DNA from: Planctomycetota bacterium
Lineage (GTDB): Bacteria; Planctomycetota; Phycisphaerae; Sedimentisphaerales; Anaerohalosphaeraceae
Assembly (NCBI GenBank): GCA_012519365.1
Contig: JAAYQH010000241.1
Location: 1 to 11,381 of the forward strand
Length of the DNA: 11,381 nt
Direction: 5' to 3'
The notes under the pieces are model-generated. The model was not told the DNA's origin. It saw nothing but the letters and a program-made list of their open reading frames with translations, and made no database searches. This document shows, in pieces, positions 1-11,381 of this stretch (the stretch's first letter is position 1; the number at the start of each line of letters is the position of its first letter). The position numbers were made by a program, and so were the translations under genes.

Positions 1-327
1 AACGATAGAATCAGCGATTTGGTTTCGGTTCAACGCATAATATCGAAGGGTCCCCTCGGCCCGATCAAACCAGCCGCTACTGTTCTCATAACGCTGACAA
101 TAGCGCTCGGTTGCGGCCAGCTGCAGCATCCACAGCAAATCGTCGCCGTGCGGCGTTTCCTTGCCGCTGATCTTTTGGGCCGCAAAGGAGCAGGCCAAGT
201 CCATTCGCCCTGTCTCATAATGGCGATTAAACACCGCCAGATTCTCCCGCGACGTATTGCACCCGATCGCAGCACACGCCATCCCCACAGAGAATACGAC
301 CCCCTGGATGGACCTGAATTGTTTCAA
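1..327 (-). CDS. N-terminal part of a lipoprotein with TPR-like helices (3' end beyond window)
   Basis: The minus-strand frame is open from about position 327 to the left edge, so only about 109 residues are visible. The likely start is a TTG at 327-325, giving MKQFRSIQGVVFSVGMACAA followed by IGC. This is a short basic N-terminus, a hydrophobic stretch and a lipobox-like A-I-G-C, so export and lipidation at Cys23 are likely. A weak Shine-Dalgarno (AGGA, 342-339) lies 11 nt upstream. An ATG at 282 is possible but would remove most of the signal peptide and has a poor ribosome site. After the Cys comes a helical region (ENLAVFNRHYETGRMDLACS, then DDLLWMLQLAATERYCQRYE and WFDRAE). This resembles the COG3014-type lipoproteins, in which a small gain-of-load helix pair precedes a 'LLW-LQ' segment and a 'F-RAE' helix. 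Family assignment is from memory of the pattern. The function is unknown and the C-terminal part is not visible. Confidence 0.68.
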   Translation of the reverse strand, partial: MKQFRSIQGVVFSVGMACAAIGCNTSRENLAVFNRHYETGRMDLACSFAAQKISGKETPHGDDLLWMLQLAATERYCQRYENSSGWFDRAEGTLRYYALNRNQIADSIV

Positions 328-392
328 CGTAAGACGGATCCTATTGACACCTAAACACTCAAACAAAACCGCAAGAGGGTTGAATTGCGCGC

Positions 393-431
393 TCTAATCG
401 CTGACTCTAAACTCAAATTCTAAACCCAAAA
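393..431. repeat. Three imperfect 13-bp tandem repeats beginning TCTAA
   Basis: TCTAA recurs at 393, 406 and 419, exactly 13 bp apart. The second and third units are closest (TCTAAACTCAAAT and TCTAAACCCAAAA). They lie in the 253-bp gap between the lipoprotein start and the end of the DeoR gene, 66 to 104 bp upstream of the lipoprotein start. They could be binding sites for a regulator of that gene or chance in AT-rich DNA. I see no other gene or RNA in this gap (328-580). Confidence 0.3.
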
Positions 432-5641: not shown

Positions 5642-6955
5642 TCAGAACTTAAACGTAAAGTCCACTGTCACAACATCGTAATCTTTTGTGACATTATTGC
5701 GGGTCCGCTTGGCGGGCATATACGACACACCAAATTGTGTATTTTTGGCCACTTGATAGGCAGCGCTGATTTTATGTCCCCGAATATTGGTACCACCGCC
5801 GGCAAGGGTCGCCTCAGCCAGTACGCCCAACAGTGCATCGGCTTCCACATCGCGATAGTTATACGACAGCGACCAGGTTCCCGGCGTGGTGGTCTTGCCC
5901 AGACTCACGCCGACCAGATAGGCGGTATCCTCGCCGGCTGCGGCAGTGTTGCACATATAATCGCCGAAAAACTGCAGCGGCAGCGGCCCGGCCGACAATC
6001 CGATTTCGGCAAACCCCTGTACCAAATCAAAATCGCTGATATAACGTCCGTCGGTACTGGACCGGTTGCCATAAAATTCCGTGCTGTCGCTTCCCAAACC
6101 GGTCTGGCCTTTGACATTGCCGTAATTGTAGTAGCCGGCGCCCACGGTCAGGCGCGTCTTGGCCTGCTCGTCCAGCATCAGCGTTGTTCCGCTCTGGATG
6201 CCCCACAAACTGGTATCGGCATCGGTTTTGCGTTCGCGGACATAAAAGCCGCCGGCCGAACCGAACACTTTGACCGATTTGGCCAAGTCCGTTTGATACG
6301 ACACGGCGATACCTTCCGGCGTAACGTCATTGTCAAACATCAAATCGCTGTTGCCGACGCGATAGTAGGGGTTTTTGATTTTACCCCCCAGCACATTCAG
6401 CCCTGTTGCCGCGGCGGGATGATAATCAAAGTAGGCCAAATCCAACCAGATATTCTTGCTGGCAAAGGCATTGCCTAAATCCTGATTGTTGGAGGTCGGC
6501 GAGCCTTCCTTAAGCGGCTCGGCGGCATTGCCGCTGGCCAGACGAAAACCATAATCGACTTCCTCATTGACCTTGCCGGTTAGACCGATGCGGGTCTGAA
6601 TACGATGACGATTGCGGTCGTCCGATTTTGTCGCATCGTCCGCCCATTCGTGCCGATACCGAAAATCTCCATAAAGGGTGATATTGCTGACCCACTCCGG
6701 AATCGCCGGCTGCTGGGCCATTCGGGTTTGCACGGCTCGATCGACGGCCTCAGCAATCGCGTGTTCATCGGCCGAGGAGGGTTCAGGTGAGGCAGCCGCC
6801 TGACTCTTCAGCGCAGCCAATTCCGCCTGCATCGCCGCCAATTGCGCCTCCAGCCGAGCGATCCGCTCTTCCTGGGTGTCGGCCGAGAGCACAGGCACAA
6901 CCCCCATCATCGCTGCCGCCGCCACGGCGGTTATCCATCGCTTGCCTTTGTTCAT
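5642..6955 (-). CDS. Outer-membrane porin (Porin_5 / putative porin family)
   Basis: The product is 437 residues. Residues 1-25 are a signal peptide (MNKGKRW, then an Ala-rich core) with cleavage likely after VLSA. A short coiled coil, ERIARLEAQLAAMQAELAAL, follows at about 30-49, then a beta-barrel that ends in the alternating aromatic strand VTVDFTFKF with a C-terminal Phe, typical of outer-membrane insertion. Motifs I associate with the putative porin family PF16930 are present: DFRYRHEW, RHRIQTRIGL, PTSNNQDLGNAF, NIWLDLAYFDYHP, GGKIKNPYY and DNDVTPEGIAVSY. The start is the ATG at 6955, with AAAGGA (6967-6962) 6 nt upstream. A longer in-frame start at 7027 would put a charged extension before the signal peptide. 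The transported solute is not predictable. The gene lies 102 bp after the chemoreceptor on the same strand and may have its own promoter. Confidence 0.9.
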   Translation of the reverse strand: MNKGKRWITAVAAAAMMGVVPVLSADTQEERIARLEAQLAAMQAELAALKSQAAASPEPSSADEHAIAEAVDRAVQTRMAQQPAIPEWVSNITLYGDFRYRHEWADDATKSDDRNRHRIQTRIGLTGKVNEEVDYGFRLASGNAAEPLKEGSPTSNNQDLGNAFASKNIWLDLAYFDYHPAAATGLNVLGGKIKNPYYRVGNSDLMFDNDVTPEGIAVSYQTDLAKSVKVFGSAGGFYVRERKTDADTSLWGIQSGTTLMLDEQAKTRLTVGAGYYNYGNVKGQTGLGSDSTEFYGNRSSTDGRYISDFDLVQGFAEIGLSAGPLPLQFFGDYMCNTAAAGEDTAYLVGVSLGKTTTPGTWSLSYNYRDVEADALLGVLAEATLAGGGTNIRGHKISAAYQVAKNTQFGVSYMPAKRTRNNVTKDYDVVTVDFTFKF

Positions 6956-7009
6956 CGTTTGTCCTTTCCACTCTTTTCCTGTTTTCCATTCTGTCCGGTG
7001 CTGACTATT

Positions 7010-7026
7010 CCTCAAGATCGCCGCCA
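7010..7026 (-). promoter_or_regulatory. Weak sigma-54-like promoter candidate for the porin
   Basis: The minus strand reads TGGCGGC-GATC-TTGAG, with the spacing of the sigma-54 consensus TGGCACG-N4-TTGCW. The key GC of the -12 element is GA here, so the match is poor. It lies about 55 nt before the start codon. It shares TGGCGGCG-N3-TTG with the better site at 9627-9642. Confidence 0.2.
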
Positions 7027-7034
7027 CGGGGTCA

Positions 7035-7063
7035 GGGCAAGGAATTAAAACATTCCCTTACCC
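7035..7063 (-). other. Hairpin spanning the chemoreceptor stop codon
   Basis: GGGCAAGGAAT (7035-7045) pairs with ATTCCCTTACCC (7052-7063) with one bulge and one wobble. The TAA stop (7060-7058) lies inside the arm. No U-tract follows on the minus strand, so it is a doubtful terminator. It may partially uncouple the receptor gene from the porin. Confidence 0.35.
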
Positions 7064-9172
7064 GTTAAAATCCATAAAATCCTGCTCTTGAGAACTGTTC
7101 TTTGCAACAGCAGCCGGGCCGATCCGACCGGTTTTACCGGTGCCTTCGGCGATGTCGTGAAAGACCCGATCATTCAATCCGAGCCGCGCCGAGTTGTGTT
7201 CAGAGGCCCTCGCTCGCGGCCCGGCTTGATGGCTTTGAGCAGCCGCCGCCCCCTCAACCAGAGACACCAATTGCTCCACAATAGCATTCAGGGCCTCGGC
7301 CTGAGCGTTCAGTTCTTCGCTGGCGCTGGCGGATTCTTCCGCATTGGCGGCATTCTGTTGAGTAACCTTGTCCATTTGCGCGACAGCGGTGTTGATCTGA
7401 TCGATACCCTGAGCCTGTTCCGAACTGGCCGCGGCAATCTCATTGATGAGCTGGGCCACTTTATCGGCGTTTTCGATGGTTTCTTTGAGCGCCTCAGAGA
7501 CGCGCTGAGTGATTTGGACACCGTTATTGGCGTTGGCGACGGATTCTTCAATCATATGCGTCGTGTCTTTGGCCGCCTCCGCCGAACGCATCGCCAGATT
7601 CCGCACCTCCTCGGCCACCACGGCAAACCCCTTGCCCGCCTCGCCGGCCCGGGCCGCCTCCACCGCCGCGTTCAGCGCCAGCAGATTCGTCTGGAAGGCG
7701 ATATCGTCGATCACGCGGATAATCTTGGCCGTCTGGTCAGAAGAAGACTTGATATCGCTGATCGCTCGGGACATCTCCTCGGTAGCCTGTGCCATCTGGC
7801 TGACAGCTTCTTTGGCCACGACCATCAAGTGCGAGGCCTCTTGGGCATTGTCGGCATTTTGTCCGGTCATGGAGCTCATTTCTTCAAGACTCGAGGACGT
7901 TTCCTCCAGGCCGGCCGCCTGCTCGGTCGCCCCTTCGGCAAGCGACTGGGAGGCCGCTGAAATCTGATTCGAGGCACTGACCACCTGCTCGGAGCCGTTG
8001 AACAATTCCCGAATAATGTGGCTCAGGGTAGCGACCAACCGTCGAATCCGCCACAATGCAATGCCCAATGCCACGGCCAAAATGCCCGCCGAGCCCATCA
8101 GCGTCATCACATTGGCCCGACTCATACTTGTGTTCAGTGCGGTCGCTTCGGTTTGGGCGGTTTGTGCCATCGCGGCCATCGAAGCCATTTGATTCTCAAT
8201 GCGGCTTTCCATCTGTTCAGTCAAGGTGTTGATGGTGTTGCGCATCTGAGAAAACGCCTGAAAACTCGCTTGCGCTTCGGTCTGTCGGGCCAGAATACGC
8301 CCTATATTGGCGTCGTTGATGGCAGCGATCTGTCGGCACTGGGCGTCCCATTGCTTGAAGGTCTCGAGGAATTCAGCATATTGGGTTTTCATGGCCTCAT
8401 CAAAATGAGCCGAGGCCTGTTTGGTACGTTCTAAAACCTGGCTCAATTCGTTGCCGTATGTGGCCACCAACGCGTCAAATTGCTGGCGATCGGTTTCTGT
8501 CGTAAACGCAAGCATCGCCACCAGCCCCTGATAGGCGTCTCGATCGGCATTGAGCAGCAATTCAATGCTTTCATATAATGCCAGCAGACGGCTCTTGTCT
8601 TCGCTGTCGGCCAGGGATTCAATTTCCTGCTCGATCAGGCCTACGACTTCATCCAGTTGCTGACGCATCACGGCGAAGGTCTCCACACTCTGGCTGCGCA
8701 GCGCATCACGACGGGACAGCTCTTTGGCCAGTGTCAAGGAAGTCTGCATCACGGCCTCTGTGGCGCGTTTCCAGTCCTCGTAGTATCGTTGAAAGGCCGC
8801 CAGGGTCTGCTGGTTTTTGTCGTCAAAATTGGCTGCTGCCAACTGCATTCGTTCTGCCACCTGCTTCAATTCCGTCGAATGAGTCTCGATCAGTTCAGCA
8901 ACTTGCCGCTCATCCTGTGCCGAGAGCACCTGCATCTCGGCCAAATAGCCCTGATGAGCATCTCGATCGGCATTAAGCAGAAATTCGATGCTGTTATTCA
9001 GCTCATCCATCTGCGGCACTTCCTCCATGATAACCGGCAGCAAGTTTTGCCCGACAGTCTGCTCAACAACACCGGAAATATGCCGCAGCATAAACCCATT
9101 GCCGGCGGTAATTATCACAAGCCCGACAAGCGGTATCGTAACCAACGTTAAAATTTGTTTTTTAATGGTCAT
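7058..9172 (-). CDS. Methyl-accepting chemotaxis protein with duplicated helical sensor
   Basis: The 704-residue transmembrane receptor signals to CheA/CheW. TM1 is about residues 8-28 and TM2 about 355-377. The extracytoplasmic part between them is all-helical and is a tandem duplication: [11 protein letters not shown] (65-75) recurs as [11 protein letters not shown] (206-216), with following helices also alike, a period of 141 residues. This recalls the two-bundle HBM sensors. After TM2 there is no complete HAMP domain. The protein passes almost directly into the signalling coiled coil, with adaptation-type helices rich in Glu/Gln pairs (about 396-450 and 575-640). The hairpin tip (about 488-527) contains [20 protein letters not shown]. 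The tail carries [14 protein letters not shown] (664-677) and ends in DFMDFNG, without a CheR-binding NWETF-type pentapeptide. The start ATG at 9172 has AGGAG 8 nt upstream. The gene follows the 90-residue ORF by 56 bp. Confidence 0.95.
7587..7693. repeat. 107-bp perfect direct repeat, copy 1 (receptor hairpin tip)
   Basis: This segment is identical base for base to 10320-10426, an offset of 2733 bp. It codes for the highly conserved CheA/CheW-contacting tip. The bases just outside differ at synonymous sites, so the identity exceeds what protein conservation alone requires. Confidence 0.95.
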
Positions 9173-9228: not shown

Positions 9229-9501
9229 TCAGGGATTGACAACGCCGGGTATCCAATGAGTTGTCGATCTGAGGCCGTTCTTTGCTCCGCAAGGCTGCAA
9301 AGACGTTTGTTTGTCAAGACAGTCGGCGATTTCCGGGGCCAAACGAAAACCGACGTTGATAACACGGGAAAAATCCGGATCCAGCACATCGTGGATGTTG
9401 TGTGCCTCGAGAAATTCGCGCGAAAGCGACGCAGCCGTATCAAAACGGCCATCGGCGATGCGTTCCCGCATCCATTTCAAAACATGATCTTCGGTAATCA
9501 T
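9229..9501 (-). CDS. Small protein of unknown function upstream of the chemoreceptor
   Basis: I do not recognise this 90-residue protein. It begins MITEDHVLKWMRERIADGRF and is soluble, with no signal peptide or membrane segment. The first two thirds look helical and acidic (FDTAASLSREFLEAHN, then DVLDPDFSRVINVGFRLAPE). The last 25 residues are Cys/Pro/Gly-containing and less ordered. The start is chosen at the ATG at 9501 because AAAGGA lies 7 nt upstream (9514-9509). An in-frame start 13 codons earlier lacks such a site. Good ribosome site, length and close spacing to the receptor support a real gene in the same transcript. A role with the receptor, such as an adaptor or cytoplasmic partner, is speculation from position only. 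Confidence 0.7.
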   Translation of the reverse strand: MITEDHVLKWMRERIADGRFDTAASLSREFLEAHNIHDVLDPDFSRVINVGFRLAPEIADCLDKQTSLQPCGAKNGLRSTTHWIPGVVNP

Positions 9502-9605
9502 AAGCGGTTCCTTTCTATTGATTTGTACTTGATTCGGCAAGAGCGAAGAGGACCTTAACCAAAGGTTCCATTTTTTGCAGCCGTACCTCCATTGATTGTC
9601 TTTTG

Positions 9606-9766: not shown

Positions 9767-11381
9767 TTACACGCTAAAGTCCGAAAAATCGTCATCCAGC
9801 GGCAGGCTCTTGCCGGCCGTCGTCGTGGAGGCGGCCTTGCCGCCGGCTGACCGAGACGCTGTCTTTGGGCCTGCAGCAATATGGTGGAACGTCTGATCGC
9901 CTAAGCCCAGTGCCTTGTGAGAGCCGCTCCCGGCGGCTCGACGCGGCGATTTGCCACGGCCATGCAGCCGTCCGCCGGAAGCGCCTTGTACCAGCGCCAC
10001 CAACTCCTCAACGATGCCCTGCATCGCTTCGGCTTGGGCACTGAGTTCCTCACTGGCGCTGGCGGATTCTTCGGCGTTGGCGGCATTCTGCTGGGTCACT
10101 TTGTCCATCTGCGCCACGGCCGTGTTGACCTGGTCGATACCCTGAGCCTGCTCGGCACTGGCCGCAGCAATCTCACCGACCAGATCGGTCGTCTTGGCAA
10201 TCCCGTCAACAATCTCGCCGAGCGCCTTGCTGACTTCTCCCGAAATCGCCACGCCGTTCTTGGTATTCTTGACCGATTCCTCAATCATATTCGCCGTGTT
10301 CTTGGCCGCTTCGGCCGAGCGCATCGCCAGATTCCGCACCTCCTCGGCCACCACGGCAAACCCCTTGCCCGCCTCGCCGGCCCGGGCCGCCTCCACCGCC
10401 GCGTTCAGCGCCAGCAGATTCGTCTGAAACGCGATCTCGTCGATGACCTTAATGATCTTGGCGGTTTCGTCGGAGGATTTTTGAATGTCGTCAATCGCCC
10501 GACTCATCCGCTGCATCGACTCGGCACCGCCCTGAGCGGCCTTACGCGCTTCGCCGGCCAAAACGCTGGCCTGTTGAGCGTTATCGGCGTTCTGCTTGGT
10601 CATACTGCTCATTTCCTCAAGCGACGAACTGGTCTCCTCCAGACCCGCCGCCTGTTCAGTCGCCCCCTCGGCCAGCGACTGTGAGGCCGACGACACCTGA
10701 CCGGAGGCCGATGCAACCTGCTGGGCACCTTCCGTCAGACCGGCAATAATGCGATTGATCGGCTTGGTAATCGCACGGGTGATGACAATGCCCAGTGCGA
10801 TCGCCAGCGCAACACCGATGATCGTGGCGGTAACACACAGTATCTCAATAAAGACGGCCTGGCTTTGAGCTCTTTCCACTTCTGTGGCGGCTACTTCATG
10901 GTTGATATCAACTATCTTGGCGAGCAATTCCGTTGCTTCCTCTTGGCGAAGCCTCACCGGCCCCATAATCTGCTGCTGCACGGCAACCATGCTATCGCTG
11001 GCATTATTGACAATTGCAAGTATCGTATCAAATGAGCCAAATACCTCTTGCATAGCCGGCATCATCTCATTTTGAAAGACTTGTCGAGCTTGCTCTTGAT
11101 TGTCGTTTTGAACCAATGTTTTGATCTGACCGACGGCCTCATGAAAACGTTGGTGTGGCGCGGCAAAAACACGCAACGCCGCGGCCAATTCCGAGTTCGT
11201 GGTTTGGAAGGTCGGGAAATAGCGTCCCGTATTACAGGCAGCATGATCGTCGCCGCCCTGAAAGGTTGCAGAAGAATCGTCCAGAAGCTGCCGTATCTTG
11301 TTAACCAGAATATAGTGATCTTTGGTATATTGTTCCAATCGGCGGGCAAGATCTATCGGATCCTGAATACCGATCTGATCA
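9767..11381 (-). CDS. Methyl-accepting chemotaxis protein with CZB-like zinc-binding sensor (5' end beyond window)
   Basis: The frame is open through the right edge ([14 protein letters not shown] precedes a TTG at 11338), so the true start and TM1 lie outside. About 537 residues are visible. The sensor region shows [18 protein letters not shown] and PHQRFHEAV. His, Cys, His and His (codons at 11317-11315, 11236-11234, 11155-11153 and 11143-11141) follow the spacing of CZB zinc ligands. A helical stretch leads to a membrane segment ([20 protein letters not shown], about 10855-10780). After it, [11 protein letters not shown] resembles only the first half of a HAMP domain. The signalling coiled coil and hairpin tip ([19 protein letters not shown]) are canonical. 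The tail has [14 protein letters not shown] (9910-9869) and ends [10 protein letters not shown] terminator follows at 9704-9740. Confidence 0.93.
10320..10426. repeat. 107-bp perfect direct repeat, copy 2 (receptor hairpin tip)
   Basis: This is the second copy of the segment at 7587-7693, in the same orientation and inside the second receptor gene. It is a possible site for recombination that would delete the intervening 2.7 kb or exchange sensor domains. Confidence 0.95.

What the first reader, a model, noticed from the sequence alone, without database searches (positions are those of the whole stretch)
11141..11381. CZB-like His-Cys-His-His zinc site apparently on the extracytoplasmic side of a chemoreceptor
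Seen: His, Cys, His and His in the sensor region with spacings 27, 27 and 4 residues, within [18 protein letters not shown] and PHQRFHEAV. Known: the E. coli DgcZ CZB domain binds zinc through H22, C52, H79 and H83, so its last two spacings are identical. CZB domains are mostly cytoplasmic and often C-terminal in receptors. Here the site precedes the visible membrane segment, so it would sense outside the cytoplasm, for example zinc or thiol oxidants acting on the Cys. The topology is inference because TM1 is outside the window.
Basis: partly seen in the sequence, partly recalled or inferred. Interest (0 to 1): 0.7.

Follow-up and report, generated by a model that had tools for sequence, protein, structure and literature searches.

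The report
Zinc-sensor domain outside the cell membrane
A bacterial swimming-control receptor carries a predicted zinc-binding sensor module on its outer side, built as an insert into a common sensor bundle; such outside zinc modules were already counted in a survey, but I found no experimental study of one.

Summary
The window ends inside a chemoreceptor gene. Its missing start, with TM1, lies on another contig of the same genome, so the His-Cys-His-His region sits between TM1 and TM2, outside the cytoplasm. Pfam CZB matches the window protein below its curated cut-off and 12 of 12 full-length homologues at E up to 0.1. A wider CZB profile aligns the four residues with the zinc ligands of E. 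coli DgcZ.

In 51 non-redundant sensors the five best-kept of 271 positions are the four ligands (51, 51, 50 and 50 of 51) and the Gly after the Cys (50).

One relative has the same 4HB without a CZB. Nested CZBs form one branch of a small tree.

Extracytoplasmic CZBs are not new: a 2021 survey counted 384 (about 3.9%). In a sample of this phylum I count 13 of 28. I think the receptor reads zinc availability or redox state outside the membrane; metal binding and stimulus are untested. Hemerythrin genes adjoin it in three genomes of its family.

The parts
9767..11380 (-). chemoreceptor gene, residues 140-676 of 676; residues 1-143 with TM1 are on contig C277 of the same genome
11012..11359 (-). 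CZB domain, about residues 147-262 of the full protein
   Evidence: Pfam CZB; model match to 3t9o at residues 146-265 and 7-126 of the window fragment
11315..11317 (-). His161, predicted zinc ligand (DgcZ H22)
11234..11236 (-). Cys188, predicted zinc ligand (DgcZ C52)
11153..11155 (-). His215, predicted zinc ligand (DgcZ H79)
11141..11143 (-). His219, predicted zinc ligand (DgcZ H83)
11243..11245 (-). His185, a nearby His that is not a canonical ligand; kept in 37 of 51 sensors
10850..11002 (-). last helix of the 4HB chassis, continuous with the CZB last helix and, in the whole-protein model, with TM2
10781..10837 (-). TM2 (residues 321-339)
   Evidence: hydropathy
10094..10561 (-). cytoplasmic MCP signalling domain; no HAMP match before it at E up to 0.1 in P0001

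Best explanation
The gene encodes a two-TM chemoreceptor whose extracytoplasmic sensor is a 4HB bundle with a complete CZB domain inserted between its third and fourth helices, by helix order at the end away from the membrane. His161, Cys188, His215 and His219 bind one zinc ion per protomer. Whether zinc is held depends on conditions outside the membrane: free zinc, sulfide and oxidants that change zinc availability, or direct oxidation of the cysteine. Gain or loss of zinc shifts the last CZB helix, which runs on into the last 4HB helix and TM2, and so moves the kinase-control domain with no HAMP domain between. Shown by computation here: sequence, topology, homology, predicted fold, conservation. 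Inferred: zinc binding itself, the stimulus, the direction of the response. My split for the stimulus: zinc availability as a readout of redox or sulfide 0.45; direct thiol oxidation 0.25; structural zinc with another ligand 0.2; other 0.1.
Confidence: 0.8

Rival explanations
1. Direct oxidant switch: the zinc-bound cysteine is oxidised outside the membrane, zinc leaves, and the signal changes.
For: HOCl oxidises the equivalent Cys of TlpD, and DgcZ and McpA CZBs were similarly reactive (PMC6715182, passages). The Cys is the only extracytoplasmic Cys in the window's receptor and in 29 of 51 sensors, so there it has no disulfide partner inside the protomer. Two hemerythrin genes lie upstream.
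Against: 15 of 28 named loci carry Desulfo- names and 6 Planctomycetota names, groups that I take to be mostly anaerobes unlikely to meet HOCl; 22 of 51 sensors have further Cys.
Confidence: 0.25
2. Structural zinc: the metal only holds the distal cap together, and the 4HB part or a subunit interface binds the real ligand.
For: A relative with the same 4HB but no CZB exists (L050); the 4HB part matches citrate- and malate-binding LBDs; tight zinc binding would not report zinc changes.
Against: The best-kept sensor residues are the ligands; the best-kept 4HB residues (W125 49, P49 48, L71 48, W115 48 of 51) come close behind, so this is only a mild argument.
Confidence: 0.2
3. The domain is cytoplasmic.
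For: Nearly all CZBs in the 2021 survey are predicted cytosolic (PMC8262984).
Against: TM1 on C277 and in P0001, TM2 before the signalling domain.
Confidence: 0.02
4. The four residues are a chance or decayed motif.
For: Sub-threshold Pfam score in the window.
Against: Kept in 50 to 51 of 51 sensors and aligned to the DgcZ ligands.
Confidence: 0.02

Closest known systems
Putative periplasmic CZBs of membrane-bound chemoreceptors (subgroup in PMC8262984)
   Same: CZB in the N-terminal region of a membrane-bound chemoreceptor; 3His/1Cys; no conserved Arg after the Cys
   Different: The residue after the Cys is Asn in 33 and Ala in 9 of 51 here, where the paper says poorly conserved or Ala. Nesting in a 4HB is not described in the passages I read; I did not see its figures, and nested CZBs may be among its 384.
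E. coli DgcZ CZB (3T9O, 4H54)
   Same: Same four ligands in order, fold match
   Different: Cytosolic, N-terminal in a diguanylate cyclase (PMC8262984); first spacing 30 instead of 27
H. pylori TlpD and Salmonella McpA
   Same: CZB-controlled chemoreceptors with zinc or redox input; TlpD has Asp before the first His, as here (D160 in 48 of 51)
   Different: Soluble, CZB C-terminal (PMC8262984); Arg341 after the Cys, which salt-bridges that Asp in TlpD (PMC12871147), is not conserved here
4HB_MCP_1 ligand-binding domains such as MCP2201
   Same: Pfam 4HB_MCP_1 over residues 4-138, structure match
   Different: Carries about 120 extra residues, the CZB, between helices 3 and 4
Sensors with two stacked helical bundles (TorS, McpS, PilJ)
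   Same: Two helical bundles outside the membrane (kind recalled, not from a call)
   Different: Distal bundle is a CZB; long matches to these have rmsd 8.2 to 10.4, a shorter PilJ match (8wdf) 2.4 over 127 residues

Membership tests
CZB domain (PF13682) | Pfam model over its gathering score | tested here: inconclusive
   Window 21.8 or 26 bits against 29.4, so not reached by this protein; 12 of 12 homologues match at E up to 0.1, best 4.1e-9
CZB domain (PF13682) | 3His/1Cys ligands in CZB order and near-CZB spacing | tested here: met
CZB domain (PF13682) | CZB four-helix fold | tested here: met
CZB domain (PF13682) | Binds zinc | not testable with these tools
   needs purified protein
Extracytoplasmic (periplasmic) CZB of a chemoreceptor | CZB between TM1 and TM2, before the MCP signalling domain | tested here: met
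4HB_MCP_1 sensor | Pfam model over cut-off and 4HB fold | tested here: met
TlpD-like soluble CZB chemoreceptor | No TM, CZB C-terminal | tested here: not met

The most novel reading that the evidence does not exclude
Extracytoplasmic CZBs are lineages of their own that moved the zinc-redox switch outside the membrane. In the nested lineage the CZB is a removable cap on an ordinary 4HB receptor, and it lets anaerobes steer by zinc availability, which reports sulfide, oxygen and redox state, without zinc first entering the cell.
Probability: 0.4. Interest if true: 0.7.

Novelty: new variant of a known kind. Interest (0 to 1): 0.5.

Why it matters
How CZB domains sense is under debate: direct cysteine oxidation, or zinc availability as a messenger of outside redox potential (PMC13370339, a 2026 preprint; outline with abstract, one passage and one section seen). 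The proteins studied in the papers I looked into (TlpD, DgcZ, McpA) are soluble, so zinc or oxidant must first cross the membrane. A CZB outside the membrane takes that step away and would make the two models directly testable. The nested form also offers a natural with-and-without pair (L050) for domain swaps.

Tried and rejected
Profile of the nested family alone against PDB sequences: no CZB hit at E up to 10. Full-length profile: MCP structures plus helical chance matches, no CZB. His185 as an alternative ligand: rejected, kept in 37 of 51 only. Helical bimodular family: not among the Pfam families matched at E up to 0.1 by the 12 members; absence only. Conserved gene neighbours as a clue to the stimulus: in 10 neighbours scanned, a small part of all, I found kinases, a sigma-54 regulator, EAL/GGDEF proteins, a CheA and an MCP, no zinc transporter; two had no match. 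Hemerythrin was not found in the fetched flanks of the 28 named loci at E up to 1e-3, nor beside G423 of the same genus as G019 (flanks about 1.5 kb), so the link rests on three genomes.

Counts that were mended: the 41/37-row conservation counts picked locus rows with a DHY filter and left out L005, which has SGHY; one search repeats the count without it on 60 rows (51 under 90% identity), leaving out L049 (cut by the contig end) and L050 (no CZB). Under, D160 (48 of 51) and Y162 (46 of 51) are no longer invariant. A spurious ORF (L039 710-2281) was and was dropped. The charge count and the tree still rest on the filtered rows. Searches did not turn minus-strand loci; one search corrects them. 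One search stopped with a script error after its first part; the charge count was redone.

That the nested architecture is not described in print rests on four searches of an open-licence library and passages of PMC8262984; its figures were not seen, and the 2011 paper that defined CZB is not held.

Full report
What is there. The window is the whole of contig C82 of a 2.58 Mb, 519-contig assembly. Its right end cuts a minus-strand chemoreceptor gene, 11380..9767, 537 residues visible. The missing part is on contig C277 of the same assembly, bases 3-431, minus strand: 143 residues with Met and TM1, 99% identical to the matching part of a full-length database protein, P0001. The two contig ends share 15 bases. 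P0001 has 676 residues and is 100% identical over the searched sensor part. In its numbering: TM1 11-29, His161, Cys188, His215, His219, TM2 321-339, MCP signalling 413-568.

Organism. For the window's dihydrolipoyl acetyltransferase, the rows that show an organism name among the 120 listed are Phycisphaerae or other Planctomycetota; one name is cut off after 'Anae'. That one lies on a contig of 4,250,973 bases, the length of the contig of G009, a genome of the window's family. G328 and G329, of the same order, are 100% identical over 3594 bases to records titled Phycisphaerales and Planctomycetota. So the host is very probably in Phycisphaerae; a family name such as Anaerohalosphaeraceae is a guess.

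Topology. TM1 and TM2 flank the CZB in 12 of 12 homologues by hydropathy and in the 22 receptor ORFs printed for 28 named loci, and the charge pattern fits N-terminus inside, sensor outside. The signalling domain after TM2 must be cytoplasmic to reach CheA, so the segment between the TMs is outside.

Is it a CZB. Pfam CZB matches the window weakly and under its cut-off, and 12 of 12 homologues at E up to 0.1. In an alignment of 23 CZB stretches that I chose, nested, TM1-proximal and others, the invariant columns are the four ligands and the Gly three after the Cys. That profile finds DgcZ (3t9o) at E 3.4e-6 and aligns the four residues with DgcZ H22, C52, H79 and H83 (the chain carries one extra residue in front; H79 and H83 are named from the finding and by counting). 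A profile of the nested family alone does not find it.

Conservation. Sixty sensors, the window's own among them, leave 51 at under 90% identity, with no motif filter. The five best-kept of positions 40-310 are His219 and His215 (51 of 51), His161, Cys188 and Gly191 (50 of 51). Asp160 is kept in 48, Tyr162 in 46, the extra His185 in 37. The residue after the Cys is Asn in 33, Ala in 9, Arg in 1. Cys188 is the only Cys of residues 36-316 in 29 of 51. Cys-to-His spacing is 27 in 46 of the 50 that keep the ligands. L094 has lost the first His and the Cys together. Selection: the named loci came by two peptide patterns, one with KDHY, six rows by Pfam CZB, the rest by sequence or profile search. 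In the order-wide profile search 24 of 161 genomes match, some only over part of the sensor; of 18 near-full matches besides the window's I read the 14 that were given as loci (L081-L094), and 13 of these keep the four ligands.

Fold. The whole-protein model (mean pLDDT 68.9, pTM 0.42) has pLDDT about 80 to 97 from residue 51 to 300, with helices 7-71, 78-103, 109-142, 147-173, 189-196, 202-230 and 234-343. VIA-align places MCP2201, a 4HB sensor, on residues 44-304 with 130 of 131 residues aligned, so about 130 model residues are skipped, and DgcZ CZB on 146-265 with 115 of 120. Foldseek alone has DgcZ CZB at rank 17, E 0.04. The window fragment alone, folded with 18 named-locus relatives, has pLDDT 91.6 and DgcZ CZB as Foldseek's first match, E 5.9e-3; VIA-align ranks MCP2201 LBDs a little higher. 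CZB and 4HB are similar bundles, so fold alone would not settle it; ligands and sequence do.

An insert, with a natural control. L050, titled Proteobacteria bacterium, is 83 of 140 identical to P0001 over residues 1-140, has nothing matching the CZB, and resumes at about 262-270, with 25 of 75 identical over 271-345. The CZB was gained by one kind or lost by the other.

How common, how related. In 294 genomes drawn across the phylum, 25 have a Pfam CZB at E up to 0.001. I sorted the 29 hits, 28 proteins, by hydropathy and the place of the signalling domain: 8 nested between TM1 and TM2 (the window's included, with its TM1 on C277), 5 between TMs by other layouts, 10 after the signalling domain and so cytosolic, 5 with neither TM nor signalling domain. 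That is 13 of 28 outside the membrane, against about 3.9% in the survey of 10,140 sequences (PMC8262984). A tree of 71 CZB rows on only 115 columns puts the 47 nested rows on one side of a branch (98/89) and the 9 other extracytoplasmic rows on one side of another (98/81); the 15 without TMs around the CZB need two changes, since L056 falls beside the latter. Long branches make this unsure. The window's receptor sits among Desulfobacterales rows, which hints at transfer between phyla, with weak support at the nearest forks.

Neighbours. Upstream on C277 lie two hemerythrin-domain genes and a CheW gene. In two genomes of another genus of the family, G019 and G425, a hemerythrin domain is in the same open frame before the receptor, with a linker of roughly 20-25 residues. 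A ribosome-binding-like AGGAAGGAG lies just before the receptor's own Met in G019, so fusion or separate start cannot be told. CheW lies just upstream of the receptor in 11 and downstream in 3 of the 27 named loci other than L050. The genome has one CheA match, two flagellin matches and four MCP signalling matches, two of them on other contigs.

Mechanism. In TlpD zinc-bound is thought to be kinase-on; breaking one His-Zn bond comes with shifts of CZB helices and of the receptor tip (PMC12871147, passages). For McpA a preprint proposes that cells respond to soluble zinc as a readout of redox (PMC13370339). Here the same switch would face outward. 15 of 28 named loci carry Desulfo- names; sulfate reducers make sulfide, which would precipitate zinc; that link is my inference. 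I found no experimental study of an extracytoplasmic CZB in the open-licence library searched.

Verdict. It belongs to a known but, as far as I could find, unstudied class; the nesting, the insert-free relative, the branch and the hemerythrin neighbours are what this work adds.

Noticed in passing
L022 530-946 and 961-1428 (contig C277), upstream of the receptor's start: Two hemerythrin-domain genes in a row, then CheW, directly before the CZB receptor.
   Followed up: partly
L081 340-3066 and L085 3-1847 (G019, G425): A hemerythrin domain lies in the same open frame before the nested CZB receptor in two species: a fusion, or two starts in one frame.
   Followed up: partly
L064/L078 and L099: Two CZB-like stretches in tandem outside the membrane, right after TM1.
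   Followed up: partly
L026 6910-8175: A second receptor-like ORF with a TM1-proximal CZB directly downstream of the nested one.
   Followed up: partly
L094: A nested CZB that lost the first His and the Cys together but kept the last two His.
   Followed up: no
window 10561-10781: No HAMP match between TM2 and the signalling domain of P0001; 2 of 12 homologues have one.
   Followed up: partly
window 7058-9172: A second chemoreceptor, 704 aa, whose sensor region matches no Pfam sensor family above cut-off.
   Followed up: no
window 9229-9540: A 103 aa ORF between the two receptors with no Pfam match.
   Followed up: no
window 5642-7027 and 581-1351: A putative porin (Porin_5) and a DeoR-type regulator.
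   Followed up: no
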